Assembly (NCBI GenBank): GCA_030263595.1
Contig: SZPG01000006.1
Location: forward strand, 1-64,000
Length of the DNA: 64,000 nt
Reading direction: 5' to 3'
From: Chloroflexi bacterium CFX6
Lineage (GTDB): Bacteria; Chloroflexota; Anaerolineae; Anaerolineales; Villigracilaceae
In this document: piece by piece, positions 28,907-52,182 of the stretch
Numbering within the stretch: position 1 is the stretch's first letter
Layout of the letters: each line of letters opens with the position of its first letter
Notes under the pieces: generated by a model
Database searches by the model: none
What the model was told of the DNA's origin: nothing
Seen by the model: the letters and a program-made list of their open reading frames with translations, nothing else
Program-made: the position numbers and the translations under genes

Positions 28907-29794
28907 ATGACTACCCTTTCCAACCGCTACGAATTCGTCCTGCTCTATGACGTAGAGAACGGCAATCCCAACGGCGACCCCGACGCGGGCAACATGCCGC
29001 GCATTGACCCCGAAACAGGCTACGGCATCGTCACCGATGTCTGCCTGAAGCGCAAAATCCGCAATTATGTGGAGATGAGAACGGGAGACAAGCCGCCTTA
29101 CAAGATTTACATCAAAGAAAACATCCCCCTGAACGTCCAACACAAAGAAGCCTATATTGCCACAGGCACACCTGTTCCGACCAATGACAATGAAAGAAAA
29201 GCCATTCGCAACAACGCCGCCAAAATTCAAGAATTGCGTCAATGGATGTGCGGCAACTTCTTCGATATTCGCACTTTCGGCGCTGTGATGAACACAGACG
29301 TTCCTGCTGGCATTGTGCGCGGTCCAGTTCAAATAAACTTCTCTCGAAGCATTGACCCAATCGTTCAACAGGAAGTGACAATCACGCGGCTCACCGTCAC
29401 TGAAGAAGGGCAGGACAAAATAACCGAGATGGGACGCAAGCACATCGTCCCCTACGGCTTGTACCGCGCCGAAGGCTACATTTCCGCCAAACTTGCCAAT
29501 GATCCCACCAAAGGCACGGGCTTTTCGGAAGAAGACTTGAACCTATTCTGGGAAGCGCTGGTCAATATGTTCGAGCATGACCGCTCGGCGGCGCGCGGCA
29601 AGATGGCGGCGCGCAGGCTGATTGTCTTCAAGCACGAAAGCGATCTGGGCAATGCTCCCGCGCATAAGTTGTTCGAGTTGGTCAAGGTCAACAAAAAACC
29701 AGAAGCCAATCCGCCGCGCAGTTTCGGTGATTACGAAGTGGCGGTGGAAAAGGCTGGCGTGCCGCAAGGCGTGGAGTTGATCGAGAAACTTTGA
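28907..29794 (+). CDS. cas7c: Cas7c (Csd2), backbone subunit of type I-C Cascade
   Basis: A 295-residue RAMP protein that lines the crRNA in multiple copies. The N-terminus with YEFVLLYDVENGNPNGDPD, then PRIDPETGYGIVTDVCLKRKIRNY, is the hallmark of Csd2. The middle VRGPVQINFSRSIDPI and the SAARGKMAARRLIVFKHES segment are conserved as well. A GGAG ribosome site precedes the ATG. Length is normal for the family. Confidence 0.95.
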   Translation: MTTLSNRYEFVLLYDVENGNPNGDPDAGNMPRIDPETGYGIVTDVCLKRKIRNYVEMRTGDKPPYKIYIKENIPLNVQHKEAYIATGTPVPTNDNERKAIRNNAAKIQELRQWMCGNFFDIRTFGAVMNTDVPAGIVRGPVQINFSRSIDPIVQQEVTITRLTVTEEGQDKITEMGRKHIVPYGLYRAEGYISAKLANDPTKGTGFSEEDLNLFWEALVNMFEHDRSAARGKMAARRLIVFKHESDLGNAPAHKLFELVKVNKKPEANPPRSFGDYEVAVEKAGVPQGVELIEKL

Positions 29795-29960: not shown

Positions 29961-29961
29961 G

Positions 29962-30351
29962 TTAATACGGTCTTTCCACCTTCACTTCTGGTAAAGGATG
30001 AAAATGCTTATCGTTCAATGTGCAAATCGTGAGACCGTAGTGGTGAGCGCTTGCCCCGATCAGGCAATCGAGAAAACCGATGCCGTGACTCAGATGAAAC
30101 TGACGATACCAATCCAACGCCGTCTGCGAGATCGCGCCCGATATGTGAACCACCGGGTAAAGCATCAACTCTTTTTCCACGATACCTTGCTCACGACGAT
30201 TGCGACAGCCTGCAAGCAGTTCAGCGGCGGTTACCACGGAATACGCCAGTTCGCCTGTGGAGAAACCACCGATCCACGCTTTGGCAGTTTCGCTGCCGCG
30301 CAGGAAGTCAATGAAAATGGAGGTGTCCAGCAGGCGCGCCGCATCAGCCAT
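29962..30351 (-). CDS. PIN-domain ribonuclease toxin (VapC-like)
   Basis: A 129-residue PIN domain. Acidic active-site residues are seen in LLDTSIFIDFL (D9), VVTAAELL (E), GFLDCLIGASA (D) and the TLNDKHF tail. VapC toxins cut tRNA or rRNA and are held by a partner antitoxin. The gene is encoded opposite to the cas genes, between cas7 and cas4, and overlaps its putative antitoxin gene by 8 bp. A standard chromosomal TA pair that entered the cas operon is the simplest view; a role in retaining the CRISPR locus is possible but not shown. Confidence 0.88.
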   Translation of the reverse strand: MADAARLLDTSIFIDFLRGSETAKAWIGGFSTGELAYSVVTAAELLAGCRNRREQGIVEKELMLYPVVHISGAISQTALDWYRQFHLSHGIGFLDCLIGASAHHYGLTICTLNDKHFHPLPEVKVERPY

Positions 30352-30586
30352 CTTGCCGCCGCTCCATGTCCTGGCGAAGTTTCAAGGCAAAGGCGGCGGG
30401 ATCGCTCGCTTCAGGATAATCCGCCCAAATGCCAAATGCGGCATGTTCGCCGGAAGTGGAGGGGCGAAGCGTTTGCCCTCGAAATTGAAGAAATTCGATG
30501 AATTGGGCAACCTCCACCAACGCATCTTTGGAGAGCGTATCCAACTGGCGAAAAATGAACTCTTTTGTTACTTGTTGAGATACCAT
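30344..30586 (-). CDS. Putative antitoxin partner of VapC (DUF2281-like)
   Basis: An 80-residue protein starting MVSQQVTKEFIFRQLDTLS, with LVEVAQFIEFLQFRG, a segment typical of small DUF2281-type antitoxins. The C-terminal half (FGIWADYPEASDPAAFALKLRQDMERR) would be the part that wraps the PIN toxin. It precedes and overlaps the toxin gene, the normal order for VapBC pairs. An obvious DNA-binding fold is not visible. Confidence 0.75.
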   Translation of the reverse strand: MVSQQVTKEFIFRQLDTLSKDALVEVAQFIEFLQFRGQTLRPSTSGEHAAFGIWADYPEASDPAAFALKLRQDMERRQDG

Positions 30587-30724: not shown

Positions 30725-30733
30725 GAGCGAACC

Positions 30734-31456
30734 ATGACCGAATACACCCCCGAAGACCTGCTCCCCCTCTCGGGCATTCAGCACTTCCTGTTTTGCCGCC
30801 GGCAGTGGGCGCTGATCCACATCGAGCAACAGTGGAAGGAGAACGCGCTCACCGCCGAAGGCAGGATCATGCACAAGCGCGCCGACGACCCGTTCTTCAC
30901 TGAAACGCGGAACGGCATCGTCACGGCGCGCTCCGTGCCGGTGGCTTCGTATCGGTTGGGATTATCGGGTGTGTGTGATGTGGTGGAATTTCTCCCCTCA
31001 CCCCCAGCCCCTCTCCCAGGGGGAGAGGGGAGCAAGGAGGGAAAGGGGAGCGCGGGCGTCAAACTCCCAAACCGCGAAGGCTTCTACTTTCCCGTTCCCA
31101 TCGAATACAAACGCGGCAAACCCAAGCGCGAACCCGTGGATGAAGCTCAGTTGTGCGCGCAGGCGATGTGCCTGGAGGAAATGCTCTCCACCAGCGTCCC
31201 GCGCGGCTATTTGTACTACGGTCAAACCCGTCACCGCGAAGAGATCGAATTTACGCCGCAGTTACGCACATTGGTAGAGGAGATGTCCGCTGAGATGCAC
31301 AACTATTTCAGCAGAGGCTACACCCCGAAGGTCAAGACTCATAAAGGTTGTCGTTCCTGTTCGCTGGCGGACGTGTGCCTGCCTGTGTTACAGGAGAAGG
31401 TCGTCGCCGCGTCGAGGTATATGAGGTATATAAAACAATATTTGGAGCAGACCTGA
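30734..31456 (+). CDS. cas4: Cas4 exonuclease (adaptation module) with in-frame repeat insertion
   Basis: A 240-residue Cas4 of the PD-(D/E)XK type with an iron-sulphur cluster. Visible elements are SGIQHFLFCRRQWALI with the first cysteine, the catalytic Asp in GVCDVVEF, the ExK in PIEYKRGK, and the cysteines of KGCRSCSLADVC. Cas4 trims prespacers and selects PAM and orientation together with Cas1-Cas2. Between the catalytic Asp and ExK about 20 extra residues (starting PSPPAPLPGGEG) come from a palindromic G/C-rich repeat. The stop codon lies within the left arm of another repeat (31449-31544), so the C-terminus was also remodelled. No ribosome site is apparent. Confidence 0.92.
   Translation: MTEYTPEDLLPLSGIQHFLFCRRQWALIHIEQQWKENALTAEGRIMHKRADDPFFTETRNGIVTARSVPVASYRLGLSGVCDVVEFLPSPPAPLPGGEGSKEGKGSAGVKLPNREGFYFPVPIEYKRGKPKREPVDEAQLCAQAMCLEEMLSTSVPRGYLYYGQTRHREEIEFTPQLRTLVEEMSAEMHNYFSRGYTPKVKTHKGCRSCSLADVCLPVLQEKVVAASRYMRYIKQYLEQT
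30994..31052. repeat. Palindromic repeat inserted in frame in cas4
   Basis: CCCCTCTCCC (31008-31017) and GGGAGAGGGG (31021-31030) form a perfect 10-bp hairpin, preceded by CCCCTCACCCCCAG. This word combination is a widespread intergenic repeat type. Here it is translated as PSPPAPLPGGEGSKEGKG inside the nuclease domain. Confidence 0.8.
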
Positions 31457-31544
31457 CAGGTTTTATTATGGCGCACGTTAATCGGACTTCTCCGAATGGT
31501 TCGATACTCAATCAATCACGGCTCTGCGAAAACCTGTCAGGTCT
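31449..31544. mobile_element. MITE-like palindromic element, left of cas1
   Basis: Perfect 16-bp terminal inverted repeats AGACCTGACAGGTTTT (31449-31464) and AAAACCTGTCAGGTCT (31529-31544), 96 bp in all. The left arm contains the cas4 stop codon; the right arm ends 12 bp before the cas1 ATG, which therefore has no Shine-Dalgarno sequence. A second copy follows cas1. Confidence 0.82.
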
Positions 31545-31556
31545 TTATACACTATT

Positions 31557-32588
31557 ATGAAACACCTCGGTAACATTCTCTACATCACCACGCCCGAAGC
31601 GTATCTCTCGCTCGACGGCGAGAATATCGTCGTCCAGAAGGATGAAAAAACCTCTACGCGGCTGCCCTTGCACAACATCGAGAACATCGTCTGCTTCACG
31701 TGGCAGGGAGCCAGTCCCGCGTTGATGGGCGCGTGCGCCGAACGAAACATCGGGTTGTGTTTTCTCACGCCGAACGGGCGCTTTCAGGCGCGGGTCACGG
31801 GCCGGGTGAAGGGAAATGTCCTTTTGCGGAAGAGTCAGTTTCAGGTCGCGGAAAAAGAAGCGCAGAGCGTCCCCATCGCCGCGTCGTTTCTGCTGGGAAA
31901 GATCTCCAATTGCCGCAAGATCATCGAGCGCGCCCTCCGTGATCATTCGATGCTTGTGAACGTGGAGGCTCTGTCGGGCGCGTCGTCCTTCATGAAAGAG
32001 ACGCTCAAAGCCATCCCGAACTGCACGACGACCGCGGACCTTATGGGTTTCGAGGGAAGCGCGGCGAAGATCTATTTTGGCGTGTTCGATAATATGATCC
32101 TGCATCAACGCGAGGATTTCTTTTTCAAGGAACGTTCACGCCGCCCGCCGCTGGATAACATGAACAGCCTGCTCTCGTTCCTGTACACTTTGCTGACGAA
32201 CGAATGCGCCTCGGCTCTCGAGACCGTGGGGCTGGATCCGTTTGTGGGCTTTCTCCACGCCGACAGACCGGGCCGCCCTTCGCTCGCGCTGGACCTGATG
32301 GAGGAACTGCGTCCCGTGATGGTGGACCGCCTGGCGCTTTCGCTGGTGAACCGCAGGCAGATCACGGGCAAGGGTTTCACACAAAAGGAGAGTGGAGGCA
32401 TTCTGATGGACGACGAGACGCGTAAAGCCGTATTGACCGCCTGGCAGGAGAGGAAGAAGGAAGAGATCGTGCATCCATATTTGAAGGAGAAGATCCTCTA
32501 CGGGCTGCTTCCGCACGTTCAGGCGATGCTGTTGGCGCGTCATCTGCGCGGCGACCTGGACGCCTACCCGCCGTTCTTTTGGAGTTAA
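31557..32588 (+). CDS. cas1: Cas1 integrase of the adaptation complex
   Basis: A 343-residue Cas1. Metal-binding active-site residues are the Glu in MGFEGSAAKIYF (about E189), the His in GFLHADRPGRPSLALDLMEE (about H254) and the acidic residues following in the same segment. It integrates spacers as a dimer-of-dimers with Cas2. The N-terminal beta domain (NILYITTPEAYLSL) and the KGFTQKESGGILMDD segment are typical of the I-C type. It is flanked on both sides by copies of the same palindromic element and has no visible ribosome site, so its expression may depend on read-through or the element itself. Confidence 0.95.
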   Translation: MKHLGNILYITTPEAYLSLDGENIVVQKDEKTSTRLPLHNIENIVCFTWQGASPALMGACAERNIGLCFLTPNGRFQARVTGRVKGNVLLRKSQFQVAEKEAQSVPIAASFLLGKISNCRKIIERALRDHSMLVNVEALSGASSFMKETLKAIPNCTTTADLMGFEGSAAKIYFGVFDNMILHQREDFFFKERSRRPPLDNMNSLLSFLYTLLTNECASALETVGLDPFVGFLHADRPGRPSLALDLMEELRPVMVDRLALSLVNRRQITGKGFTQKESGGILMDDETRKAVLTAWQERKKEEIVHPYLKEKILYGLLPHVQAMLLARHLRGDLDAYPPFFWS

Positions 32589-32595
32589 TCGTGAG

Positions 32596-32692
32596 AGACC
32601 TGACGGGTTTTCGCGGAGGTTCGCTCAACCGGGCAGATCGCCGTTCGGAGAATCCAGGATCATCACGCGTCACAACGAAACCCGTCAGGTCT
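32596..32692. mobile_element. MITE-like palindromic element, right of cas1
   Basis: AGACCTGACGGGTTT (from 32596) and AAACCCGTCAGGTCT (to 32692) form the ends of a 97-bp element, almost the same size as the copy left of cas1. The arms differ from the left copy by a compensated A/G change. The interior is unrelated in detail, as expected for a structure-conserved element. Confidence 0.82.
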
Positions 32693-32709
32693 TAAGAAAG
32701 GAAGTTTGT

Positions 32710-33000
32710 ATGATGGTCTTGATCACCTACGACGTAAGCACTGAATCCGAGGCAGGCAAGAGACGATTACGCAAGGTCTCGAAGAAATGCCAGGATTACG
32801 GTCAGCGCGTGCAGAACTCGGTCTTCGAATGCCTGATTGACCCGGCGCAGTTGAAGGAGTTACAGCACATCCTGCTGAAGATCATTGACCCGGAAGTGGA
32901 CAGCCTGCGTTATTATTACCTCGGCGATAATTGGAAACACCGCGTGGAACACGTCGGCGCGAAGCCGGGCATTGACCTGGAGGGTACGATCATTACATAA
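32710..33000 (+). CDS. cas2: Cas2 of the adaptation complex
   Basis: A 96-residue ferredoxin-fold protein: VLITYDVSTESEAGKRRLRK with the conserved Asp after the first strand, VQNSVFECLIDPAQLKEL and DSLRYYYLGDNW are standard for type I-C Cas2. It bridges the Cas1 dimers during spacer integration. AAAGGAAG precedes the ATG. It is the last cas gene; the leader and array follow in the same direction. Confidence 0.95.
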   Translation: MMVLITYDVSTESEAGKRRLRKVSKKCQDYGQRVQNSVFECLIDPAQLKELQHILLKIIDPEVDSLRYYYLGDNWKHRVEHVGAKPGIDLEGTIIT

Positions 33001-33214
33001 TGTTCAGTATGTCACTCTGAGCGACCGAAGGGAGCGAAGAGTCTTGTTGCGAACCCGATGCTCACGTGAAAACAAGGGAAGGTTCGCAGATAATTTTGCA
33101 CTTTAACAATTGAATAGCGCTTTGAAAAGTATGATTCTGGCGGATTCGCGACTATAATAAAAAATGTAAGACCAATATCTGGCGGTAGAGATATTTTTTT
33201 ACCCAGATGTTGCC
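33001..33214 (+). promoter_or_regulatory. CRISPR leader with -10 box
   Basis: 214 bp between cas2 and the first repeat. The first part (about 33009-33050) is a palindromic repeat (CTCTGAGCGACCGAAGGGAG-type). The second is AT-rich and has a TATAAT box at 33153-33158, about 57 bp before the first repeat, with no good -35 at standard spacing. ATCTGG and CCAGAT near 33177-33207 can pair around a T7 run. Its position by cas2 and repeat orientation mark this as the acquisition end. Confidence 0.75.
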
Positions 33215-36200
33215 GTCGCTCCCTTCATTGGGAGCGTGGATTGAAACGATATTCGGTTGTCCCATCGAGTTGGTCTCTGCAAGTCGCTCCCTTCATTGGG
33301 AGCGTGGATTGAAACGTCCAGTACGCAAAACACCGTTGCGTCATTGGTTCGTCGCTCCCTTCATTGGGAGCGTGGATTGAAACCTCTACGCGCATCTCCT
33401 GGACAACGCCAATCTCGTCGCTCCCTTCATTGGGAGCGTGGATTGAAACGTGCGCGCGGCGGGGCGTTGTGAGTGTACCGGCGAAGTCGCTCCCTTCATT
33501 GGGAGCGTGGATTGAAACACAAATCCGAAAAGTAGATAGTCCCAAAACCCGGGTCGCTCCCTTCATTGGGAGCGTGGATTGAAACCCACAATCCGCCACA
33601 GTGCATTCAACACGCCGACGTCGCTCCCTTCATTGGGAGCGTGGATTGAAACATTGTCACCATTGACGAAAGCGGCTCGATGGCGGAGGTCGCTCCCTTC
33701 ATTGGGAGCGTGGATTGAAACATTGGTTTTGGATGGGGTGGATGAAATCAGACCGCGTCGCTCCCTTCATTGGGAGCGTGGATTGAAACCTTGAATTGTG
33801 GAGGCTCTTTAGTCACCTCCTGCCGTCGCTCCCTTCATTGGGAGCGTGGATTGAAACCTGCCATGCTATTCTCCTTTCATCTTCGCCCGCGTCGCTCCCT
33901 TCATTGGGAGCGTGGATTGAAACACAATGAGACGGGATGCGCATCAGCCACGCCCGCGTCGCTCCCTTCATTGGGAGCGTGGATTGAAACCCGCTGGCGG
34001 GGGTATCAAAGACCGATTGGCGTAGTCGCTCCCTTCATTGGGAGCGTGGATTGAAACAAAGATAAAAATCATCTTTGAGACGTGCGGGCAATGTCGCTCC
34101 CTTCATTGGGAGCGTGGATTGAAACACCGCGCTGTGTTTTGATTTGGCTTTCCAATTCGTCGCTCCCTTCATTGGGAGCGTGGATTGAAACTGATGAACG
34201 ACTATCCTTTGTTCGGCGGCGTGTGGTCGCTCCCTTCATTGGGAGCGTGGATTGAAACGACATGATAGGCGACCGTACAGAGTTTACAATAGCGTCGCTC
34301 CCTTCATTGGGAGCGTGGATTGAAACGAGGCAAAGCGGTGATCGTCGCTTTTGTTCTTTAGTCGCTCCCTTCATTGGGAGCGTGGATTGAAACCTGGTTG
34401 TAGTGGTCATGGTTGATCTATCCTTTGTCGCTCCCTTCATTGGGAGCGTGGATTGAAACTCGATGTGCGTTACCAGACTCCCCCACATCCTCGTCGCTCC
34501 CTTCATTGGGAGCGTGGATTGAAACGATGAGTTGCCCGGCTGACCCCTCGGGGATGTTGTCGTCGCTCCCTTCATTGGGAGCGTGGATTGAAACGCCGAA
34601 GTTCTCGTCATCTTCGGAGTTGCTCTCGTCGCTCCCTTCATTGGGAGCGTGGATTGAAACCTTTGGCGGATTAGCCGCCCAACTAATGTATTAAGTCGCT
34701 CCCTTCATTGGGAGCGTGGATTGAAACATATTTGGAACGATCCCTTGTGGGTTGATTGGCGTCGCTCCCTTCATTGGGAGCGTGGATTGAAACCCCGAAA
34801 AATCTCCGGATACTCAGGAATCTGTACGTCGCTCCCTTCATTGGGAGCGTGGATTGAAACCGAAGCAGGTCGTTATCTTCGCAAGTATTCTTATGTCGCT
34901 CCCTTCATTGGGAGCGTGGATTGAAACCCGATAGAATGGTTCCAGCGCTGGCAGTTTCCAGTCGCTCCCTTCATTGGGAGCGTGGATTGAAACAGAAACC
35001 AACTTAGACCCAGGCTGACTTATTTTAGTCGCTCCCTTCATTGGGAGCGTGGATTGAAACGCCTGCGGCGCGTCCTTGACCTCCACGTAGCCGGCGTCGC
35101 TCCCTTCATTGGGAGCGTGGATTGAAACGCACACAAGACCCGCAAGCGCTACGCCTGCTCGAGTCGCTCCCTTCATTGGGAGCGTGGATTGAAACCTCGT
35201 TTGTTGGGGGGAGCGCAGCGCATCTGAGCGTCGCTCCCTTCATTGGGAGCGTGGATTGAAACTTCAAGATTATCATTTCGACTCCTTGCCCGAAAGGTCG
35301 CTCCCTTCATTGGGAGCGTGGATTGAAACCGCTTGTTGCTTTGTTTGGTGGGGCGATGGGTAGTCGCTCCCTTCATTGGGAGCGTGGATTGAAACGGCGG
35401 GTCCTAGATAATTCGAGTCGCGCGCCTTGTCGCTCCCTTCATTGGGAGCGTGGATTGAAACTTTATCTATCGAACTTATACCCCAGGACATCTATAGTCG
35501 CTCCCTTCATTGGGAGCGTGGATTGAAACTCATACACGAAGGCGTCGTGGTAGAGGCGGTACTGGTCGCTCCCTTCATTGGGAGCGTGGATTGAAACTTT
35601 GTGACCCTCATCTCAGTGACCAAGGAATACCAAGTCGCTCCCTTCATTGGGAGCGTGGATTGAAACCTGTTCGTCGAACTCCACGCGGAAGTAGGTCAGG
35701 TCGCTCCCTTCATTGGGAGCGTGGATTGAAACAGGTTGTCCGCCACGGAATGACGCGGCGGTTTCGGGTCGCTCCCTTCATTGGGAGCGTGGATTGAAAC
35801 CACGATAATTGTACGCCGTCGATCCGGGTCCCCAGGTCGCTCCCTTCATTGGGAGCGTGGATTGAAACCCGTTCGGGGTCTGGAATATTGCGCCCTTGGG
35901 GGGTCGCTCCCTTCATTGGGAGCGTGGATTGAAACACCTGCGAGGGGTAACTCGATCTGATACGCGTCGAGTCGCTCCCTTCATTGGGAGCGTGGATTGA
36001 AACAGGGTGATGCCCTTGTAAAAACGGGTCTGCGGGAGTCGCTCCCTTCATTGGGAGCGTGGATTGAAACTTGCCTGAGACGTTGGAATATATCCAGCGT
36101 TTACGTCGCTCCCTTCATTGGGAGCGTGGATTGAAACAGGTCGGGCAAGGTGAAGGATGCACCGATCTCGTGTCGCTCCCTTCATTGGGAGCGTGGATTG

Positions 36201-39200
36201 AAACACATTTTCGGACGTTTTCTCCACCGATGGACTGAGTCGCTCCCTTCATTGGGAGCGTGGATTGAAACCCATCTTGACCAATCGACGCGCTATATCA
36301 TTGATGTCGCTCCCTTCATTGGGAGCGTGGATTGAAACTTTGTTGTGAGTATCACACGTAGAAAAGATACTAGGTCGCTCCCTTCATTGGGAGCGTGGAT
36401 TGAAACGCAGAGGAAAGCGAAAGCGTCGGGTATATATCCACCGTCGCTCCCTTCATTGGGAGCGTGGATTGAAACCAGCAGATCATCGTTGCCATAAACG
36501 GGACAAACAAGTCGCTCCCTTCATTGGGAGCGTGGATTGAAACTTGTCCGGCGAATATGGAGGCGTCATTGAGGACTAGTCGCTCCCTTCATTGGGAGCG
36601 TGGATTGAAACACGCTCGATCGCATGGACAACGAGGAAATGCTCGGGTCGCTCCCTTCATTGGGAGCGTGGATTGAAACAGCGTGACGTACATCACGTCG
36701 ACGACCGATTCCGTCGCTCCCTTCATTGGGAGCGTGGATTGAAACAACGTCGGCCTTGCATACGGGACGTTATCCGACCGTCGCTCCCTTCATTGGGAGC
36801 GTGGATTGAAACGGTGGCGAGGCGGTAGAACTTGTGCAGATGCTCGTCGCTCCCTTCATTGGGAGCGTGGATTGAAACCCATCGAACGCGGCACGAACTA
36901 CCTGCAACCGCGCGTCGCTCCCTTCATTGGGAGCGTGGATTGAAACGAGGCTGGTAATTCCGTCCACAACCTTGCCGCCCTGGTCGCTCCCTTCATTGGG
37001 AGCGTGGATTGAAACCAGAAGACCCAGAAGACATAAAAGCCCTAAAAGGCGTCGCTCCCTTCATTGGGAGCGTGGATTGAAACCTCCCTGTTGTTCAGGG
37101 GGTAGAGATTGCAAAATGGTCGCTCCCTTCATTGGGAGCGTGGATTGAAACTCTGACTGGATCGACGAATATGTCGACTAATCAAGTCGCTCCCTTCATT
37201 GGGAGCGTGGATTGAAACTCGATTGAGGTCGTCATTGACGACCTCTGGGAGTCGTCGCTCCCTTCATTGGGAGCGTGGATTGAAACCCCAATTATGTATG
37301 ACGCCTCGCTGGCGTCATAGTCGCTCCCTTCATTGGGAGCGTGGATTGAAACGGCGTTACATACCCGGCAAGAACCGAAGGACAATAGTCGCTCCCTTCA
37401 TTGGGAGCGTGGATTGAAACGTTTCTGGATGACTGTGGAGTATCAAATTATTGGAGTCGCTCCCTTCATTGGGAGCGTGGATTGAAACTTCTTCCTTCTC
37501 GGGCTTTTTTATAATTATGCCTGTCGCTCCCTTCATTGGGAGCGTGGATTGAAACTTTATCTATCTTCTTCATTCAATAAATCTGTTGTCGCTCCCTTCA
37601 TTGGGAGCGTGGATTGAAACACCTTGCAAAGAGGCATTATGAAAATAAAAATCGGGTCGCTCCCTTCATTGGGAGCGTGGATTGAAACATCCTCGGTGCC
37701 TTTGTAGGGTACGCTCTGGGAAGTGGTCGCTCCCTTCATTGGGAGCGTGGATTGAAACAGGGCATTCTCCGGCCGCCTGGAAGTCAAACAAGAGTCGCTC
37801 CCTTCATTGGGAGCGTGGATTGAAACCCCCACGCTCCGAAGTCGTATTGTAATCCTGCATCGTCGCTCCCTTCATTGGGAGCGTGGATTGAAACTTTTCT
37901 GCTTCCCTCCAAGCAATTTCTCCAATCCTGTCGCTCCCTTCATTGGGAGCGTGGATTGAAACATCGCTGCGATCGTGTAACGCTTGACGCTGTGTCAAGT
38001 CGCTCCCTTCATTGGGAGCGTGGATTGAAACCAGCCTCAGTGGTGTACTTGGCGACCTTTTCGGTCGCTCCCTTCATTGGGAGCGTGGATTGAAACTCTA
38101 TGTATTTCCCTGCTTCTCGAATCTGTATTGTCGCTCCCTTCATTGGGAGCGTGGATTGAAACTACAGGTGATTGAGGCCCCTGCGTCGTATTATCAAGTC
38201 GCTCCCTTCATTGGGAGCGTGGATTGAAACTCGAATCTGTATTGTGGAGTATGAATTTGGTGACTACGTCGCTCCCTTCATTGGGAGCGTGGATTGAAAC
38301 ATCTATGCTAATCAGGGCGGCGGCGGGTAACGCAAGTCGCTCCCTTCATTGGGAGCGTGGATTGAAACCTACGGTCAACCTGTCTTTGTCGATGATGATG
38401 GGGTCGCTCCCTTCATTGGGAGCGTGGATTGAAACGAGGTTCCGCATTGCGGCTTGCTCTGCCTGGTATTGTCGCTCCCTTCATTGGGAGCGTGGATTGA
38501 AACTTTGACAATCTTGAAAGAAGCCAAACGGATACAAGTCGCTCCCTTCATTGGGAGCGTGGATTGAAACCAGCCTTGCCGCCCTTGCTTTGCCCATCGG
38601 TGGTGTCGCTCCCTTCATTGGGAGCGTGGATTGAAACGTCGGGCCTTGCAGGTCAGCCGCTCTATTTATAGTCGCTCCCTTCATTGGGAGCGTGGATTGA
38701 AACTTTGATTTATACTCTCCGCACCTCTGCATAATGGTCGCTCCCTTCATTGGGAGCGTGGATTGAAACCGAAAATGGTACTAACGACACGCTTGACGCT
38801 CCGGGTCGCTCCCTTCATTGGGAGCGTGGATTGAAACGAGCCAGTCTGGGACAAAATATCCGGCTTCGAAGTCGCTCCCTTCATTGGGAGCGTGGATTGA
38901 AACAAGCCTGGGATTGGATTACGTCGAACTGGCACGGGTCGCTCCCTTCATTGGGAGCGTGGATTGAAACCGACAATCGTTGCTATATTTGCATTTTCTC
39001 ATTTTGTCGCTCCCTTCATTGGGAGCGTGGATTGAAACACTGATTATGTAGAGGCACATAACTACGCCGTTAAGTCGCTCCCTTCATTGGGAGCGTGGAT
39101 TGAAACATCAAAAAGTATCTTGATGGCAAGTGGAGCGCCAAGTCGCTCCCTTCATTGGGAGCGTGGATTGAAACTGCAATGCCACAAGTGCAGGCATAAC

Positions 39201-42200
39201 CACCAGACGTCGCTCCCTTCATTGGGAGCGTGGATTGAAACCTGTTCTGGCGAACTGGGATTGACATAATCAGCGGTCGCTCCCTTCATTGGGAGCGTGG
39301 ATTGAAACTTCGCTCCTTATTGCGTAGAAATCGTCAGAATGGCGTCGCTCCCTTCATTGGGAGCGTGGATTGAAACTTATCGAAGCGAATATGGGGGTGA
39401 GCCCCCCACCGTCGCTCCCTTCATTGGGAGCGTGGATTGAAACGTTGATCCAGTCGGAAAATGTCACTTCGGCTAAGTCGCTCCCTTCATTGGGAGCGTG
39501 GATTGAAACCAAGACCATGCAAGGAGATCATACCACGCCTCCAGTCGCTCCCTTCATTGGGAGCGTGGATTGAAACGACTTGATTTGAGTTTTGATTGTG
39601 GTCATTGCTATGTCGCTCCCTTCATTGGGAGCGTGGATTGAAACTTGGCACTGATTGTGTAACGCTTGTGCTGCCCATCCTGTCGCTCCCTTCATTGGGA
39701 GCGTGGATTGAAACTATTGATGGCAAAGCATGGATGAACCCGCCATTCGTCGCTCCCTTCATTGGGAGCGTGGATTGAAACAGGTTCGCGCCGCGCATGG
39801 CGGCCTGTAGAAGTGCGTCGCTCCCTTCATTGGGAGCGTGGATTGAAACTCCGATCAGCGCCTCGAAATGCGCCAGCGTGTCGTCGCTCCCTTCATTGGG
39901 AGCGTGGATTGAAACGCGGTAGGCGTTTTGCCAAGCCCTGAAAGTATCCAGTCGCTCCCTTCATTGGGAGCGTGGATTGAAACGTGAAGGCATACAACCC
40001 TAAAACGGATAAGTACGGTCGCTCCCTTCATTGGGAGCGTGGATTGAAACATCGTTGGCGACGAATGGATACCTTTGAGTAAAGGTCGCTCCCTTCATTG
40101 GGAGCGTGGATTGAAACAGGTCGGAGATGGTGAAGGACACGCCGATCTCGTGTCGCTCCCTTCATTGGGAGCGTGGATTGAAACGTCAGATCAGAACAAA
40201 CGCCACTCATACCGATTGGGTCGCTCCCTTCATTGGGAGCGTGGATTGAAACTGCTTTCACGAGCCGCCGCCCGCCCTTGTCGCTTGGTCGCTCCCTTCA
40301 TTGGGAGCGTGGATTGAAACGGCTTTTGCGTAATCTGCCGCCGTGAGAAGTTGGTCGCTCCCTTCATTGGGAGCGTGGATTGAAACTTCCGATCAGCGCC
40401 TCGAAATGCGCCAGCGTGTCGTCGCTCCCTTCATTGGGAGCGTGGATTGAAACAGGTCGGACAGGGTAAAAGATGCGCCGATCTCGTCGTCGCTCCCTTC
40501 ATTGGGAGCGTGGATTGAAACCGATGTACGAGGCGACGCAACGGCAGAGGGAGATCGTCGCTCCCTTCATTGGGAGCGTGGATTGAAACGATTTCAGCCA
40601 TACGCGCTTTGATTTCGGCGGTATAGTCGCTCCCTTCATTGGGAGCGTGGATTGAAACTCCCAGGCTACGCCGTGGATCTGGCGGCTCGTGTAGTCGCTC
40701 CCTTCATTGGGAGCGTGGATTGAAACTTAATGAATTCTTTGCAGCGGTAGGTGTCGCCTTTGTCGCTCCCTTCATTGGGAGCGTGGATTGAAACGGCTTG
40801 AGAGCCGTATCTTTTAGCAAGTTGGTTGAGGTCGCTCCCTTCATTGGGAGCGTGGATTGAAACTTGAGTTTTGATAATAAGGCAATATTAGCTGCCTGTC
40901 GCTCCCTTCATTGGGAGCGTGGATTGAAACGATGTTGTTAGTATAGCATATACGCTATACATTGTCGCTCCCTTCATTGGGAGCGTGGATTGAAACTTTA
41001 CAGCGGTAGGTGTCGCCTTTAATGAGCACGCCGTGTCGCTCCCTTCATTGGGAGCGTGGATTGAAACGAGATATTGCTCGGTTGTACTCGTCGGATCTTG
41101 GTCGCTCCCTTCATTGGGAGCGTGGATTGAAACCAGTATGGATTTGCTGCGTTTTTTGCAGCAAATCGTCGCTCCCTTCATTGGGAGCGTGGATTGAAAC
41201 AACGCGTTACCTTGATAGGGGTTACTTTTTTTGGTCGCTCCCTTCATTGGGAGCGTGGATTGAAACAGGCTCTGGGGTTGCAGAGTGTTTTTCGGTATTT
41301 TGTCGCTCCCTTCATTGGGAGCGTGGATTGAAACGCTCAAAAATATTGTACTCCAGAACGTTATCTTGAAGTCGCTCCCTTCATTGGGAGCGTGGATTGA
41401 AACAAAAGTAGAATCGTATAACAGGGACGGGATTGATGTCGCTCCCTTCATTGGGAGCGTGGATTGAAACTTGGCAGGGATGTAATCATCTCCACGAATT
41501 GCAAAGTCGCTCCCTTCATTGGGAGCGTGGATTGAAACCCGTCCGTTCGTCCGCCGCATGACGATCTCCAAAGTCGCTCCCTTCATTGGGAGCGTGGATT
41601 GAAACACTATCATGTGCAAAAACAACAGAAGAAAAATATAGTCGCTCCCTTCATTGGGAGCGTGGATTGAAACCAACGACTGTATGCCGTCGCGGTTTCT
41701 GGCTCGCTGTCGCTCCCTTCATTGGGAGCGTGGATTGAAACCGGGAGACCGCCGGAACGGGACTTTCGGCGCACACGTCGCTCCCTTCATTGGGAGCGTG
41801 GATTGAAACTGAAGCAGGTCGCTATCTTCGCAGGTATTCTTATGTCGCTCCCTTCATTGGGAGCGTGGATTGAAACATATCTGGAACGATCCCTTGTGGG
41901 TTGATTGGTCGTCGCTCCCTTCATTGGGAGCGTGGATTGAAACCATATCCAAAGACCACCAAATAGCGACGAAGAAAAGTCGCTCCCTTCATTGGGAGCG
42001 TGGATTGAAACTCCTACTGTTATGCGCCAATCTATGTTCCTTGAATGTCGCTCCCTTCATTGGGAGCGTGGATTGAAACGTCACCACACCCTCACAAGGA
42101 AGCTCCCGCACCGGTCGCTCCCTTCATTGGGAGCGTGGATTGAAACGGCGTTATTGTCATCGCGAGGCTTGCGCCTCTTGGTCGCTCCCTTCATTGGGAG

Positions 42201-45200
42201 CGTGGATTGAAACAGGGATATAACGTGCATATTATCAGCGGGATGATGCAGGAGGTCGCTCCCTTCATTGGGAGCGTGGATTGAAACGTCCCAAGCGTAG
42301 CCAGTTCGCCCATTGGGATAAGTCGCTCCCTTCATTGGGAGCGTGGATTGAAACTTGTATCCCACAGGAGCGAACATGAATAAAACAAGTCGCTCCCTTC
42401 ATTGGGAGCGTGGATTGAAACGGATACAGTTTCGGCATTTTCGGATACAGTTTGCGGTCGCTCCCTTCATTGGGAGCGTGGATTGAAACAAAACTGCGGA
42501 TATGACGCGCATTAGCGCGTACCCCGTCGCTCCCTTCATTGGGAGCGTGGATTGAAACACGGTAAGCAGCAAATGGTGGATCGCAGTAGCCATGTCGCTC
42601 CCTTCATTGGGAGCGTGGATTGAAACCCGTGTCCAACACGCAGAACACCGTCGCATCGTGTCGCTCCCTTCATTGGGAGCGTGGATTGAAACCTTTCATT
42701 GGTTGCCCTTACCCCTGGCGGGACAAGGTCGCTCCCTTCATTGGGAGCGTGGATTGAAACTCGCACTCGCGGGTTACGCAAACCGTTAGCCGCCGTCGCT
42801 CCCTTCATTGGGAGCGTGGATTGAAACTATTAGCTTACGGTCACAGAAAGGGCAAGCATCGTCGCTCCCTTCATTGGGAGCGTGGATTGAAACCATTTGA
42901 CACCTTTTCTCTCCGATACTATGCCTACGTCGCTCCCTTCATTGGGAGCGTGGATTGAAACATATACCAAGAGGCTGGATAACGGACTAGCGTTTGGTCG
43001 CTCCCTTCATTGGGAGCGTGGATTGAAACTTATATCCCTGTCTGTGAACCGCAAAAACGGCAAGTCGCTCCCTTCATTGGGAGCGTGGATTGAAACGGCG
43101 CGGGCTTTGTTTTGTAAATCAGTGTTTGCGTCGCTCCCTTCATTGGGAGCGTGGATTGAAACGATTCCCAATGTCGGGGTATTCACGATTACGCCGGTCG
43201 CTCCCTTCATTGGGAGCGTGGATTGAAACGATTACGACTGGTTGATTAACGCGCCCGGTAAGGGTCGCTCCCTTCATTGGGAGCGTGGATTGAAACCTCG
43301 GATATTCTCGCTGCCTCATCCCCGACCACGGTCGCTCCCTTCATTGGGAGCGTGGATTGAAACTGCCGCTCTATCCACCTGCGGCTCGGCGTCAACGGGT
43401 CGCTCCCTTCATTGGGAGCGTGGATTGAAACTCCAGCCCGATTTGACCTTCCACGCCATAATCACGTCGCTCCCTTCATTGGGAGCGTGGATTGAAACTT
43501 ACGACATGCCCAACATCCCAGATAACACCCCGTCGCTCCCTTCATTGGGAGCGTGGATTGAAACTGTAGACTTCACGAAATCGGGATAAGAACGATCTGG
43601 TCGCTCCCTTCATTGGGAGCGTGGATTGAAACACGCTGTCAAGGGTTAGGATGGTCAAAAACTCCAGGTCGCTCCCTTCATTGGGAGCGTGGATTGAAAC
43701 CATTGTCGGCGTTCGTCGGTTTCGCCACGTTGGGTCGCTCCCTTCATTGGGAGCGTGGATTGAAACATCATTCAAGCGCCCAAGCGTTTCGATCCGTGCA
43801 GTCGCTCCCTTCATTGGGAGCGTGGATTGAAACAACTGCTCCGAGTTCGGAACAAACGCCTTTGCCTGTCGCTCCCTTCATTGGGAGCGTGGATTGAAAC
43901 CCGGACGAAGATCGCCCGACGAAAGAAGGCATTACGAGTCGCTCCCTTCATTGGGAGCGTGGATTGAAACGTCTTATGCTCACGATCCATCAACTGGCGA
44001 AAGGGTCGCTCCCTTCATTGGGAGCGTGGATTGAAACATCCGGGAAAAGGATTATGTCCCATCGGCAGACAAGTCGCTCCCTTCATTGGGAGCGTGGATT
44101 GAAACGAGCAAGGGAAGAGTTTGACGGTGGAGCAAGCGCGTCGCTCCCTTCATTGGGAGCGTGGATTGAAACCATCTATCGCCTGCTGGAACGCTCGCGT
44201 TAACTGTCGCTCCCTTCATTGGGAGCGTGGATTGAAACGCTGACAGAGATGCTTGTCAGGCTTACAATGTCATCTAGTCGCTCCCTTCATTGGGAGCGTG
44301 GATTGAAACATAACACCTCAATCTGTAATCGCTGCGCTTGCTCGTCGCTCCCTTCATTGGGAGCGTGGATTGAAACGCACATTCAGGGCGGAAAGATCGG
44401 ACAGATCAATGTCGCTCCCTTCATTGGGAGCGTGGATTGAAACTGATTATGTCGTTTGTGACAGCGCGGAACCCAAAGTCGCTCCCTTCATTGGGAGCGT
44501 GGATTGAAACGCTCTCGTGGACGATGCGGGCAACGATTATGACGGTCGCTCCCTTCATTGGGAGCGTGGATTGAAACGCCGCCGAAGATGCAATCATCAA
44601 CGGTGATGGTGTCGCTCCCTTCATTGGGAGCGTGGATTGAAACCTTGACAGAACAGCCGCGCGCCATTCTCTCGACAGTCGCTCCCTTCATTGGGAGCGT
44701 GGATTGAAACAGGCCCGTTGCCTTGAACGGGTTCAAACGCTTGTGTCGCTCCCTTCATTGGGAGCGTGGATTGAAACTCGTCCATGATATTGTTCTCCTG
44801 TTTGATTTGTGTCGCTCCCTTCATTGGGAGCGTGGATTGAAACTCTTTGTTTGTTTTTTATAACGGTCGGTTTCCGGTCGCTCCCTTCATTGGGAGCGTG
44901 GATTGAAACCGCCAGGTTTGACAAGGCGATGCGACAGTTCTATCGTCGCTCCCTTCATTGGGAGCGTGGATTGAAACATTCCAACGCGCATTAAATCCGT
45001 CCTGTTTTAGCGTCGCTCCCTTCATTGGGAGCGTGGATTGAAACACGTTATTCCGGTATGGCTACCGCGATCCACCAGTCGCTCCCTTCATTGGGAGCGT
45101 GGATTGAAACATCAAAGCGTCTAATTTGCCTGTCGGATACATCTTCGTCGCTCCCTTCATTGGGAGCGTGGATTGAAACTTAGACATAGAGACTCCCATC

Positions 45201-48200
45201 GTTGTTGATTGTGTCGCTCCCTTCATTGGGAGCGTGGATTGAAACTCCGTCGCGTCCGCGCTCTGCGCCTTGCCGCTGGTCGCTCCCTTCATTGGGAGCG
45301 TGGATTGAAACATGTCCATGCCCAAACCAGCCATGACGGTAGATAGGTCGCTCCCTTCATTGGGAGCGTGGATTGAAACACGAAATCGTCAATCGGCACG
45401 CCGGACGAATACGTCGCTCCCTTCATTGGGAGCGTGGATTGAAACCACCGGCTCTCGTTGTGAACGGATACGGAACCTGGTCGCTCCCTTCATTGGGAGC
45501 GTGGATTGAAACGTCGCCAGCTGTAAATGCTCCGCCGCCATAAAGAGTCGCTCCCTTCATTGGGAGCGTGGATTGAAACGTTCCAGGGCTGTGGTATCTT
45601 GACAACCGATGCGGGTCGCTCCCTTCATTGGGAGCGTGGATTGAAACTTCAAACGTAATCATTCGATACCTCTTTCTAGGGCGTCGCTCCCTTCATTGGG
45701 AGCGTGGATTGAAACGTCGTCGGAAATTGCGCGGCAAGAGGCGATAGAGTCGCTCCCTTCATTGGGAGCGTGGATTGAAACCCTCGAATATCCACTTGTG
45801 CCTGTAAACGTAGAAGGTCGCTCCCTTCATTGGGAGCGTGGATTGAAACTCGGCTACTGCAAAATACTTTGACGAGATTTCACAGCGTCGCTCCCTTCAT
45901 TGGGAGCGTGGATTGAAACAGCTAGGACGTAACGACCATGCGGGGGGATAATGGTCGCTCCCTTCATTGGGAGCGTGGATTGAAACACTTGACCAGAAAG
46001 AGGTTGGCGACCATCCAGCGTCGCTCCCTTCATTGGGAGCGTGGATTGAAACCCTGTACCCTGTCGGGCGTCCACTGTCTGGCAACGTCGCTCCCTTCAT
46101 TGGGAGCGTGGATTGAAACGCAGGCGCGGGTCTGTTGTTCTTCGGCGACACGAAGTCGCTCCCTTCATTGGGAGCGTGGATTGAAACTCTCGCGCGGGTA
46201 GTCGTGTTGCCACATGCCTGTCGTCGCTCCCTTCATTGGGAGCGTGGATTGAAACCCCGAGGTACACAAATGGCAAAGGCGTTTGAAGGTCGCTCCCTTC
46301 ATTGGGAGCGTGGATTGAAACCTGCCAGTTGCGCTTATCCACACAGGTATAGTAGTCGCTCCCTTCATTGGGAGCGTGGATTGAAACCCTTGACCTGCTT
46401 TTTTTGCTGCTCCAAGACATAGTCGCTCCCTTCATTGGGAGCGTGGATTGAAACCACTTGAACCAACCCCGCCACGCCGCGACATTGGTCGCTCCCTTCA
46501 TTGGGAGCGTGGATTGAAACGTCACCGAGGCGTACAATTCGAGCCTGTACTTCGTCGCTCCCTTCATTGGGAGCGTGGATTGAAACTGAACGAGCAGAAG
46601 ACGGTGGCGGTCACACCGTCGTCGCTCCCTTCATTGGGAGCGTGGATTGAAACACAATACCTCAATCTGTAATCGCTGCGCTTGCTCCAGTCGCTCCCTT
46701 CATTGGGAGCGTGGATTGAAACTGTCAGGATGGTGAAATAATCGACCAGCATATTGAGTCGCTCCCTTCATTGGGAGCGTGGATTGAAACGCTGAAATCC
46801 TACGGGAACTGAAAGCAAGCGGTTGTCGCTCCCTTCATTGGGAGCGTGGATTGAAACGACGAGCTGGTGAACCCTGCCGCAGAAGATGACGACGTCGCTC
46901 CCTTCATTGGGAGCGTGGATTGAAACAGGCTGTGAACCAGACCGACCTGCACCAGCCAGATGTCGCTCCCTTCATTGGGAGCGTGGATTGAAACTTGTCA
47001 TCATTGGCGGCGATGCTTACACCGTCCGAGTCGCTCCCTTCATTGGGAGCGTGGATTGAAACACGAGCCAGACGTAATCCTGCACGCCCGCCCACGTCGC
47101 TCCCTTCATTGGGAGCGTGGATTGAAACATAATACATCAATCTGTAATCGCTGCGCTTGCTCCAGTCGCTCCCTTCATTGGGAGCGTGGATTGAAACTTC
47201 GTTGAAACTCGCTTTCTCCGCGTCTGCGGGTCGCTCCCTTCATTGGGAGCGTGGATTGAAACAGCATCCGGCAAAGACAAAAGTGCTGGCGATGGGGTCG
47301 CTCCCTTCATTGGGAGCGTGGATTGAAACCTTGTCGAAGCCCTGTAACGATAGAGAAGGAAGGTCGTCGCTCCCTTCATTGGGAGCGTGGATTGAAACCA
47401 CTGTCCATCTTTCCCCTTATCCATACGGCGAGTCGCTCCCTTCATTGGGAGCGTGGATTGAAACCATCCCGGCAGTAGTATCGGGGATAATAATGATGTC
47501 GCTCCCTTCATTGGGAGCGTGGATTGAAACTCTTCTGGAACGGGAGCGGGGAATAGGGGCGTATTGTCGCTCCCTTCATTGGGAGCGTGGATTGAAACAC
47601 CATCAATACCCTGGAACAAATCCCGGTGAAAAAGGTCGCTCCCTTCATTGGGAGCGTGGATTGAAACGTCAATGGCATCAAGCGCCTGTTGTACTTCCTG
47701 TTGTCGCTCCCTTCATTGGGAGCGTGGATTGAAACTCGTCGTCCCACCACTGGCTAACGTTGCGCTCATGGTCGCTCCCTTCATTGGGAGCGTGGATTGA
47801 AACGCCAGTCTTGTAGCCGATGGTGTTGGCATTCGTGTCGTCGCTCCCTTCATTGGGAGCGTGGATTGAAACTTCAAAAAACGCCAGCAACTCCTCAGCC
47901 GTTGCGGGTCGCTCCCTTCATTGGGAGCGTGGATTGAAACACCAATCAACAGGGCGATCAAATTGACGGGTTCGTCGCTCCCTTCATTGGGAGCGTGGAT
48001 TGAAACACCGACTGCGCCCCGAAATCTTCCACCTTTTTTGTCGCTCCCTTCATTGGGAGCGTGGATTGAAACAAAACGTGGGGGACGCTTGGCGGCTGGA
48101 CGCCCTTGTCGCTCCCTTCATTGGGAGCGTGGATTGAAACATTTTGTCCACGTATGCCAATATTGTTTTGGCGTGTCGCTCCCTTCATTGGGAGCGTGGA

Positions 48201-50029
48201 TTGAAACTTATATTTGTCTCGATAACTATTGCGCGAATATCGTCGCTCCCTTCATTGGGAGCGTGGATTGAAACCTTTCTATCTGCCTAACTATGGATTG
48301 AACGGAATTGTCGCTCCCTTCATTGGGAGCGTGGATTGAAACATTTGCATAGGTTTGTTGACGACAAATACCAACTCGTCGCTCCCTTCATTGGGAGCGT
48401 GGATTGAAACCCTCTGCATCCGCAGTTTCGTTCGCCGATCATCCCGTCGCTCCCTTCATTGGGAGCGTGGATTGAAACTGATAGGTGGTCTTTGGCAAGG
48501 CGGCATCCTTGTGTCGCTCCCTTCATTGGGAGCGTGGATTGAAACCTCAATACGACCTTACCGATGCGGTCGGTACCAAGTCGCTCCCTTCATTGGGAGC
48601 GTGGATTGAAACACCACAGGGAGGCGAAAAGTGTTAGTACCAAGGAGGTCGCTCCCTTCATTGGGAGCGTGGATTGAAACATTGCATAGAATCCTCAGCG
48701 TCATTGTGGCGCATGTCGCTCCCTTCATTGGGAGCGTGGATTGAAACCTGCACAACATCGTCCACGATGCGCTCGATGTCCGTCGCTCCCTTCATTGGGA
48801 GCGTGGATTGAAACCAGGTCGAGGTAAGGCTTGAGGAGTTCGGGGAGTTGTCGCTCCCTTCATTGGGAGCGTGGATTGAAACACTACTCAAGGGCGTTGG
48901 GAGTATCAATACCTTGAGTCGCTCCCTTCATTGGGAGCGTGGATTGAAACCCGCGACAGTTGATCGAATGGTTCTTCCCTGGTGAAAGTCGCTCCCTTCA
49001 TTGGGAGCGTGGATTGAAACCTTGAATTGGTTGAAGAGTGTATCACGGTCGAGCGTCGCTCCCTTCATTGGGAGCGTGGATTGAAACGCCTCTGTCTACG
49101 TCGTCGCGTGGGTGGTGTTCGAGTCGCTCCCTTCATTGGGAGCGTGGATTGAAACAAACTCAACCAGGCGGTGACAACTCCCAAGGGTCGTCGCTCCCTT
49201 CATTGGGAGCGTGGATTGAAACTTGACCTCCTCCACGTTCGTGCCAAACAAGCCAAGGTCGCTCCCTTCATTGGGAGCGTGGATTGAAACTACTTTTGGG
49301 TGCCTGCGTGACGATGTCCCTGGCGTCGCTCCCTTCATTGGGAGCGTGGATTGAAACCTCGTCGGTCTGTTTGCGAGACGATCTCCCCTCCAGTCGCTCC
49401 CTTCATTGGGAGCGTGGATTGAAACCTAAGGATCCTCGGACTGATAGCCAGGTTTTTAATGTCGCTCCCTTCATTGGGAGCGTGGATTGAAACCAGCATG
49501 GCGGTCACTCGTTCGGCAGGCAGGTTTAGTCGCTCCCTTCATTGGGAGCGTGGATTGAAACGTGTAGTGATCTTCCGGTGATTATACCTCACCGGTCGCT
49601 CCCTTCATTGGGAGCGTGGATTGAAACGTTCCACCTGTTCGCCCACAACTGCGCCCGCTGGTCGCTCCCTTCATTGGGAGCGTGGATTGAAACTACTTGC
49701 CGCCGCGTGCCACTCCCTGTTGGTCTCGTGTCGCTCCCTTCATTGGGAGCGTGGATTGAAACACTACAGTTGCGTAAAAAGTGTTAGTACCAAGGAGTCG
49801 CTCCCTTCATTGGGAGCGTGGATTGAAACAGGTTAGATTACCCTGCAAGAGCAAAGACAGATGGTCGCTCCCTTCATTGGGAGCGTGGATTGAAACATTG
49901 CGGTCGTGTTGTCTGTGTCGGACGCGGCTCGTCGCTCCCTTCATTGGGAGCGTGGATTGAAACTCCAGCAACTCGGGCGCGTCGCGCTCAACCGCCGTCG
50001 CTCCCTTCATTGGGAGCGTGGATTGAAAC
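33215..50029 (+). CRISPR. Type I-C CRISPR array, about 250 repeats (33 nt) and 249 spacers
   Basis: The first repeat is 33215-33247 and the last 49997-50029. I counted repeat starts line by line and obtained 250, for a mean period of 67.4 bp; spacers are mostly 33-37 nt, a few up to 38. Repeats end in GTGGATTGAAAC, the type I-C signature, and hold a 7-bp stem CGCTCCC/GGGAGCG with loop TTCATT; cutting after the stem leaves an 11-nt handle. I saw no variant copy, even at the end far from the leader. Several groups of spacers are near-identical or overlapping. All frames running through the array are artefacts of the 33-nt unit. The sequence after the last repeat is an rhs remnant. Confidence 0.98.
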
Positions 50030-50190
50030 TATGGCATCGCCGAGGAAGTATTCTGTTCCTGTGTTCACCTGTGCGATCCTGCCAACCCCGTAAATGTAAT
50101 GATTCGTGCCATCACTCAAGGCTTGCGTGAGACCGGTGCTGAGGTCCATCGTAAAAGTAGTTGTAACACCATTGACGGTCTCTTACAAGC
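50030..50190 (-). pseudogene. rhs/YD-repeat protein fragment abutting the last CRISPR repeat
   Basis: On the minus strand the frame reads ETVNGVTTTFTMDLSTGLTQ, then LSDGTNHYIYGVGRIAQ, then TEYFLGDAI, and stops exactly where the last repeat begins. This is the strongly conserved segment of the Rhs/YD-repeat core just before its usual GSVRQL continuation. No start or full domain remains. The junction shows that array and rhs sequence were joined by a rearrangement. Confidence 0.8.
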
Positions 50191-50239
50191 GTTGTCCTGA
50201 GTTTCTCGAAGGGCGGTCGCCGAGCCCTTGTAGGGAAGA
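50191..50239. repeat. Short palindromic repeat copy
   Basis: CCTGAGTTTCTCGAAGGGCG resembles the inverted form of the CCTTCGACAGGCTCAGG family found at 16680 and 54913. It lies between the rhs fragment and the next promoter. Confidence 0.45.
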
Positions 50240-50911: not shown

Positions 50912-50992
50912 TGTCGAACCTACTGCGTCACCCAAGTTGCTAAATCACTCCACTCGAAGGTGGGCCGAACTGTTCCCAGTTTGGTTCATCTT

Positions 50993-51016
50993 TTCATTGG
51001 GAGCGTGGATTGAAAC
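50993..51016 (+). repeat. Isolated CRISPR repeat tail (24 nt)
   Basis: The last 24 nt of the array repeat, TTCATTGGGAGCGTGGATTG plus AAAC, occur once, 964 bp after the array. The 5' part of the repeat is missing. An rhs fragment follows directly, as at the array end. Confidence 0.9.
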
Positions 51017-51230
51017 AGTCCCGTCTGCGTAGCAATACCAACCCCATAAGCCTCTCCCGTAAACGCGTATGAAGTTTGCGAAGAACCAGGCGTTTGAGTT
51101 ACAACCCCATAGGGATCATAGGCGCGGGCATACGTAATCTCACCGCTTGAATTGGCAAGCTGCCTTACAAATCCATCATGAAGGTAGTTGTAATCCCTTT
51201 CACGGTTTCCAGTGAGCTTTTCCACAGCTG
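51017..51230 (-). pseudogene. Second rhs/YD-repeat fragment, frameshifted, abutting a CRISPR repeat tail
   Basis: On the minus strand one frame reads ETVKGITTTFMMDL and then hits a stop; the next frame gives VRQLANSSGEITYARAYDPY and then GVVTQTPGSSQTSYAFTGEA. Compared with the fragment at 50030-50190 it matches in the TTTF-MDL part but lacks the segment up to GDA, so it has an internal deletion with frameshift. It ends at the isolated repeat tail. Confidence 0.75.
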
Positions 51231-52122: not shown

Positions 52123-52166
52123 TTGGTATCGTCCCATCTATCATGGTCTTGATGGAAGGTGAAGGT

Positions 52167-52182
52167 GAGCGTGGATCGAAAC
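52167..52182 (+). repeat. Second CRISPR repeat-like relic (15 of 16 nt)
   Basis: GAGCGTGGATCGAAAC matches the last 16 nt of the array repeat with one change (T to C). It lies 7 bp from the end of the methyltransferase gene, 2.1 kb beyond the array. Confidence 0.6.

What the first reader, a model, noticed from the sequence alone, without database searches (positions are those of the whole stretch)
33215..50029. Giant, uniform type I-C array: about 250 repeats
My hand count is 250 repeats (249 spacers) over 16.8 kb, far above the tens typical for a bacterial array. No repeat copy seemed to differ, not even the leader-distal ones, where decay is normal. This implies frequent acquisition with very low loss, or homogenisation of repeats. 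It also provides an unusually long infection record.
Basis: seen in the sequence. Interest (0 to 1): 0.72.

Follow-up and report, generated by a model that had tools for sequence, protein, structure and literature searches.

The report
Very long uniform CRISPR memory array
This bacterium (by its closest Cas1 relatives a Chloroflexota/Anaerolineales species) carries an ordinary type I-C CRISPR immune system with an exceptionally long but otherwise normal memory bank of 249 distinct virus fragments between 250 identical repeats; the length is rare, while the uniformity turns out to be common.

Summary
The count is exact: 250 perfect 33-bp repeats and 249 spacers (32-41 nt), none duplicated, at 33215-50029, beside a complete type I-C cas operon (cas3-5-8c-7-4-1-2) and a leader conserved in relatives. 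No other copy of the array and no second cas1 were found in the 4.07-Mb assembly. It is the largest count in a 400-genome phylum sample (next in any genome counted: 173), yet below the published 587 and 1,131 spacers. The uniformity needs no special explanation: 11 of 20 related I-C arrays of 50 or more repeats have no internal variant, 15 of 28 with a readable end have a perfect last repeat, and the nearest relative's is 155/155. Absence of duplicated spacers argues against recombinational homogenisation and assembly duplication. Spacers hit a prophage and a phage contig in relatives; the PAM is 5'-TTC, read twice from overlapping spacers. Six targets were sampled repeatedly, up to 106 positions apart, so the array records repeated contact with diverging viruses. 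Verdict: real, rare in size, a new member of a known kind. Long reads remain the missing check.

The parts
33215..50029 (+). CRISPR array, 250 identical 33-bp repeats, 249 unique spacers
33165..33214 (+). leader end with a spaced inverted repeat (CAATATCTGG ... CCAGATGTTGC) next to repeat 1, conserved in most Anaerolineae I-C loci; putative integration anchor
   Evidence: function inferred
22776..25988 (+). Cas3 (HD nuclease + helicase) with N-terminal HTH-WYL/WCX regulator fusion, 1070 aa
26105..26785 (+). Cas5c (Cas5d)
26782..28716 (+). Cas8c / Csd1
28907..29794 (+). Cas7 / Csd2
29962..30351 (-). VapC-like PIN toxin inserted between effector and adaptation genes
30344..30586 (-). VapB-like antitoxin candidate (sub-threshold match)
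30734..31456 (+). Cas4
31557..32588 (+). Cas1c, the only cas1 found in the assembly
32710..33000 (+). Cas2
50030..50191 (-). remnant of an Rhs/YD-repeat-like gene abutting the last repeat
   Evidence: Rhs assignment from sequence motifs only, no Pfam hit
50984..51016 (+). decayed CRISPR repeat outside the array (28/33)
51017..51211 (-). second remnant of an Rhs/YD-repeat-like gene, abutting the decayed repeat
   Evidence: frame 2; D4
52150..52182 (+). second decayed CRISPR repeat (16 of the last 18 nt)

Best explanation
An ordinary type I-C adaptive immune locus with a very long array. Cas4-Cas1-Cas2 insert new spacers at the leader and copy repeat 1 each time; the array is transcribed and cut by Cas5c at the repeat hairpin; Cas8c-Cas7-Cas5 complexes find targets with a 5'-TTC PAM and Cas3 degrades them. 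Repeats are identical because each is a recent faithful copy of the leader-proximal repeat; no homogenising process is needed. The array grew by about 249 separate acquisitions, some from the same diverging virus lineages. The older, decayed end lies outside the present array: decayed solo repeats persist 1-2 kb downstream, mixed with Rhs-like gene debris and a toxin-antitoxin pair. Shown: anatomy, uniqueness of spacers, PAM, phage targets, comparators. Inferred: activity, growth by acquisition, break-up of the old end.
For: 250/250 identical repeats, 249 unique spacers. Complete I-C gene set over curated cut-offs, single cas1. Repeat forms a 7-bp hairpin, -14.3 kcal/mol, z -4.4. Leader conserved in relatives. 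Spacer 110 matches a prophage in a same-genus genome with 2/36 mismatches next to TTC; spacer 97 matches a contig with terminase, portal, head and integrase genes, 2/34 mismatches, TTT. Spacers 73/75 and 112/116 overlap head to tail, so the bases 5' of 75 and 116 can be read from the partner: TTC both times. TTC is the known I-C PAM (PMC7913775). Repeated targets: 23/129, 25/128, 44/103/108, 99/107, 165/200/207, 229/246. Uniform repeats are common in relatives. Solo repeats also occur in relatives, as expected if arrays collapse by repeat-repeat recombination (PMC8047081).
Against: No expression, acquisition or interference data. Only a handful of 249 spacers have an identifiable target (no INPHARED or PLSDB megablast hit; IMG/VR pattern scans empty). 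Spacer 142 hits with CCC rather than TTC in two of three genomes. Array length rests on a draft assembly of 141 contigs without read evidence.
Confidence: 0.88

Rival explanations
1. Repeats are kept identical by recombination or gene conversion between repeats (homogenisation).
For: Perfect identity over 8,250 repeat bases, at most about 3.6e-4 substitutions per site at 95%; solo repeats in relatives suggest recombination happens.
Against: Unequal recombination should leave duplicated spacers: none among 249, while two relatives have 6 and 8 duplicated spacers. Copying of repeat 1 already predicts identity. Related arrays show variant blocks that persist, e.g. 37 consecutive variant repeats in L129, so such homogenisation is not general.
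Confidence: 0.05
2. Assembly artefact: the array is inflated by duplication, or is a mosaic of several strains' arrays.
For: Draft genome, 141 contigs, 90.9% complete; many related metagenome contigs end inside an array.
Against: No spacer is repeated, so duplication is excluded; all repeat units are regular; the array lies well inside a 184-kb contig. A strain mosaic is not excluded.
Confidence: 0.07
3. The array is a very recent burst (few generations of intense acquisition), hence uniform. This concerns its age and is compatible with the main explanation.
For: No repeat substitution; no spacer shared with relatives.
Against: Re-sampled targets have diverged by 2-7 substitutions between array positions, which suggests time for virus evolution, unless diverged viruses co-circulated.
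Confidence: 0.15

Closest known systems
Type I-C CRISPR-Cas array of Anaerolineae MAG CFX11 (L043/L119)
   Same: Identical repeat, conserved leader, Cas1 92%, Cas2 96%, HTH-WYL-Cas3 N-terminus 86%; 155/155 identical repeats with a perfect last repeat
   Different: 155 repeats instead of 250; six duplicated spacers; a different effector cassette (Cas3 core, Cas5, Cas7 about 32%, Cas8 23%; still Csd1/Cas5d/Cas7 by Pfam)
Ornatilinea apprima type I-C array (L029/L126)
   Same: 172 of 173 repeats identical, perfect last repeat, same gene order
   Different: Shorter; repeat differs in the stem
Haliangium ochraceum DSM 14365 array (587 spacers) and the metagenomic maximum of 1,131 spacers
   Same: Very long single CRISPR arrays (PMC7145573; PMC8026048)
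   Different: More than twice and four times as long; subtypes not compared here
WYL-Cas3 fusions described in 2014
   Same: A WYL domain fused to HD-helicase Cas3 in some type I systems (PMC4012209)
   Different: Nothing essential; here the fusion is found throughout the Chloroflexota I-C loci examined

Membership tests
Type I-C CRISPR-Cas | Cas8c/Csd1 signature protein | tested here: met
   TIGR01863, 418.7 bits (cut-off 218.65)
Type I-C CRISPR-Cas | Cas5c and Cas7/Csd2 | tested here: met
   TIGR01876 185.4 bits, TIGR02589 362.6 bits
Type I-C CRISPR-Cas | Cas3 with HD and helicase domains | tested here: met
   TIGR01587 and TIGR01596 over cut-off; extra HTH-WCX part
Type I-C CRISPR-Cas | Cas4-Cas1c-Cas2 adaptation genes | tested here: met
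   TIGR00372, TIGR03640, TIGR01573, (Cas4 and Cas2 over cut-off, Cas1c 491.9 bits against 385)
Type I-C CRISPR-Cas | 5'-TTC PAM | tested here: met
   3 of 4 best-supported protospacers (spacers 110, 75, 116; 97 has TTT); spacer 142 mixed
Type I-C CRISPR-Cas | hairpin-forming repeat of about 32-33 nt ending GTGGATTGAAAC | tested here: met
   same ending in I-C relatives
Type I-C CRISPR-Cas | no Cas6; Cas5c processes crRNA | tested here: inconclusive
   no Cas6 match among operon proteins; processing not testable here
Type I-C CRISPR-Cas | active acquisition and interference | not testable with these tools
   no reads or expression data

The most novel reading that the evidence does not exclude
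The array is a readable record of virus escape and recapture: the same protospacer was taken up two or three times from successively changed versions of one virus. In the group 165/200/207 the only differing positions are 2, 5 and 8, in the PAM-proximal seed and in codon-like spacing; over all groups 17 of 23 variable sites lie in the PAM-proximal half (p about 0.017, sites not independent; seed positions 1-8 alone p about 0.15).
Probability: 0.25. Interest if true: 0.55.

Novelty: new member of a known kind. Interest (0 to 1): 0.36.

Why it matters
A 249-spacer array with unique spacers and a perfect repeat is a long ordered sample of the viruses met by an uncultured Chloroflexota lineage whose viruses are almost absent from the databases searched here. 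It can be used as bait to find those viruses, and its re-sampled targets give a way to test whether phages escape by seed mutation and are captured again. It also shows that array uniformity should not be read as a sign of homogenisation.

Tried and rejected
Whole-array megablast against phages and plasmids: no hit. Word-11 blastn against phages gave only weak single-spacer hits of E about 2-9 plus matches of three unannotated faecal records that follow the repeat pattern rather than spacers. IMG/VR pattern scans for four re-sampled or overlapping targets: nothing. Phage relatives fetched by terminase from IMG/VR (92 contigs) gave no match below 7 mismatches; spacer 169 at 7 mismatches translates to an INGDG stretch like that of capsid proteins, not counted. 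Several BLAST hits in relatives turned out to be repeats at contig ends or solo repeats, not targets (read against the coordinates). Self-targeting: no protospacer in the window flanks and none found in the own genome (that search scores a limited number of candidates). Homology of the Rhs-like debris to other copies in the own genome: none listed (the list is dominated by the repeat). Homogenisation and assembly duplication rejected as leading explanations (see rivals).

Full report
Observation. Exact search finds 250 identical copies of the 33-bp repeat GTCGCTCCCTTCATTGGGAGCGTGGATTGAAAC from 33215 to 50029, and 249 spacers of 32-41 nt, with no exact duplicate among them. The array lies inside a 184-kb contig of a 4.07-Mb assembly in 141 contigs; no other array with this repeat was found and only one cas1.

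What it is. Upstream, on the same strand, is a complete type I-C operon: Cas3, Cas5c, Cas8c/Csd1, Cas7/Csd2, Cas4, Cas1c, Cas2. The repeat RNA folds into a 7-bp hairpin (-14.3 kcal/mol, z -4.4). The leader next to repeat 1 carries a spaced inverted repeat, CAATATCTGG ... CCAGATGTTGC, conserved across most Anaerolineae loci examined and absent from the eight outgroup leaders printed; that it anchors integration is inference.

Is the size unusual? In a 400-genome sample of the phylum the window genome has the most GCGTGGATNGAAAC sites, 252 (250 repeats plus two decayed ones); the next are 166, 157 and 124. Among further genomes counted, Ornatilinea apprima has 173. Draft assemblies break in arrays, so the comparison is biased against rivals. 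Published maxima are 587 spacers in Haliangium ochraceum (PMC7145573) and 1,131 in metagenomes, where the mean is 12.7 (PMC8026048). Under the distribution fitted in that paper, arrays of 249 or more have probability about 2e-5 to 7e-5. So it is a far-tail but not a record array.

Is the uniformity unusual? No. In 40 comparator arrays next to Cas1 relatives, 81 of 2,624 internal repeats differ (3.1%), 37 of them in one block of one array; 11 of the 20 arrays with 50 or more repeats have no internal variant, and 15 of 28 arrays with a readable end have an exact last repeat. Full arrays: 155/155, 165/165 and 111/111 identical, 172/173. Zero changes in 8,250 repeat bases bounds divergence at about 3.6e-4 per site. 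Each new repeat is copied from the leader-proximal one (established knowledge), so identity is expected.

Homogenisation or artefact? Unequal recombination should duplicate spacers. The window array has no duplicate, whereas two relatives have six and eight duplicated spacers. The same fact excludes inflation by assembly duplication. A strain mosaic cannot be excluded without reads.

The distal end. Beyond the last repeat are decayed repeats on the same strand at 50984-51016 and 52150-52182, the only other such sites in the genome. Both the last array repeat and the first decayed repeat abut fragments whose reverse-strand translation looks like an Rhs/YD-repeat protein (no Pfam hit for the first). 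Between and after them lie DUF7718 and DUF5647 genes and a PIN/Phd-YefM pair. The simplest reading is that the old, decaying end was broken up by insertions and deletions. Relatives also contain isolated repeats, and collapse of arrays by repeat-repeat recombination is discussed in the literature (PMC8047081).

Targets and PAM. Spacer 110 matches a prophage (RecT, endolysin, terminases, portal) of a same-genus genome with 2 of 36 mismatches, flanked by TTC. Spacer 97 matches a methyltransferase-like gene of a contig with terminase, portal, head protein and integrase, 2 of 34 mismatches, flanked by TTT. Independently of any database, spacer 75 begins inside spacer 73 and spacer 116 inside spacer 112, and the preceding bases are TTC in both. 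Excluding spacer 142, which is mixed, three of four flanks are TTC. Reversed spacers gave no match at the same stringency. Public phage and plasmid records hold no megablast match.

Repeated sampling. Six groups of spacers share a target, nearly all with changed letters (99/107 differ only by a one-base shift of the start): 23/129, 25/128, 44/103/108, 99/107, 165/200/207, 229/246; 162 overlaps 200/207 on the other strand. Partners lie up to 106 positions apart, so the same virus lineages were met again after many acquisitions. In 165/200/207 only positions 2, 5 and 8 vary, which fits seed escape followed by recapture; the overall bias is weak.

Verdict. A genuine type I-C array of exceptional length, ordinary in mechanism and in uniformity. 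New member of a known kind.

Noticed in passing
window 22776-33000; L043, L025: Chimeric locus: the HTH-WYL part of Cas3 and Cas4/Cas1/Cas2 are 86/81/92/96% identical to L043, but Cas3 core/Cas5/Cas8/Cas7 only 32/32/23/32%; those are 84/81/68/79% identical to L025. The effector cassette appears to have been exchanged with breakpoints inside cas3 and between cas7 and cas4, while the identical repeat was kept.
   Followed up: partly
window 29962-30586 (-); L043 8481-9174; L013 8601-9285; L027 8694-9382: The cas7-cas4 gap holds different toxin-antitoxin modules in different relatives, all antisense to cas: VapC with a weak VapB-like match here, HEPN/MNT in L043 and L013, PemK with DUF2281 in L027; L016 keeps a lone relative (78%) of the window's antitoxin. 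Large gaps also occur at cas4-cas1, so specificity is unproven.
   Followed up: partly
window spacer 142 (42761-42794); L185, L146, L186: Spacer 142 matches repeats about 128 nt long spaced about 700 nt that look like integron attC sites in several relatives; flank TTC in L186, CCC in L185 and L146.
   Followed up: partly
window 22776-23800; L009-L043: HTH-WYL(WCX) fusion to Cas3 is found throughout the Chloroflexota I-C loci examined; WYL-Cas3 fusions are already described (PMC4012209).
   Followed up: yes
window 33165-33214: Conserved spaced inverted repeat in the leader directly before repeat 1.
   Followed up: partly
L129 (Bellilinea relative) repeats 41-77: A block of 37 consecutive repeats carries the same variant inside an otherwise nearly uniform array, a natural marker of a past change of the template repeat.
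   Followed up: no
window 51261-52009 (-): PIN toxin with Phd/YefM-type antitoxin just downstream of the array, between the two decayed repeats.
   Followed up: no
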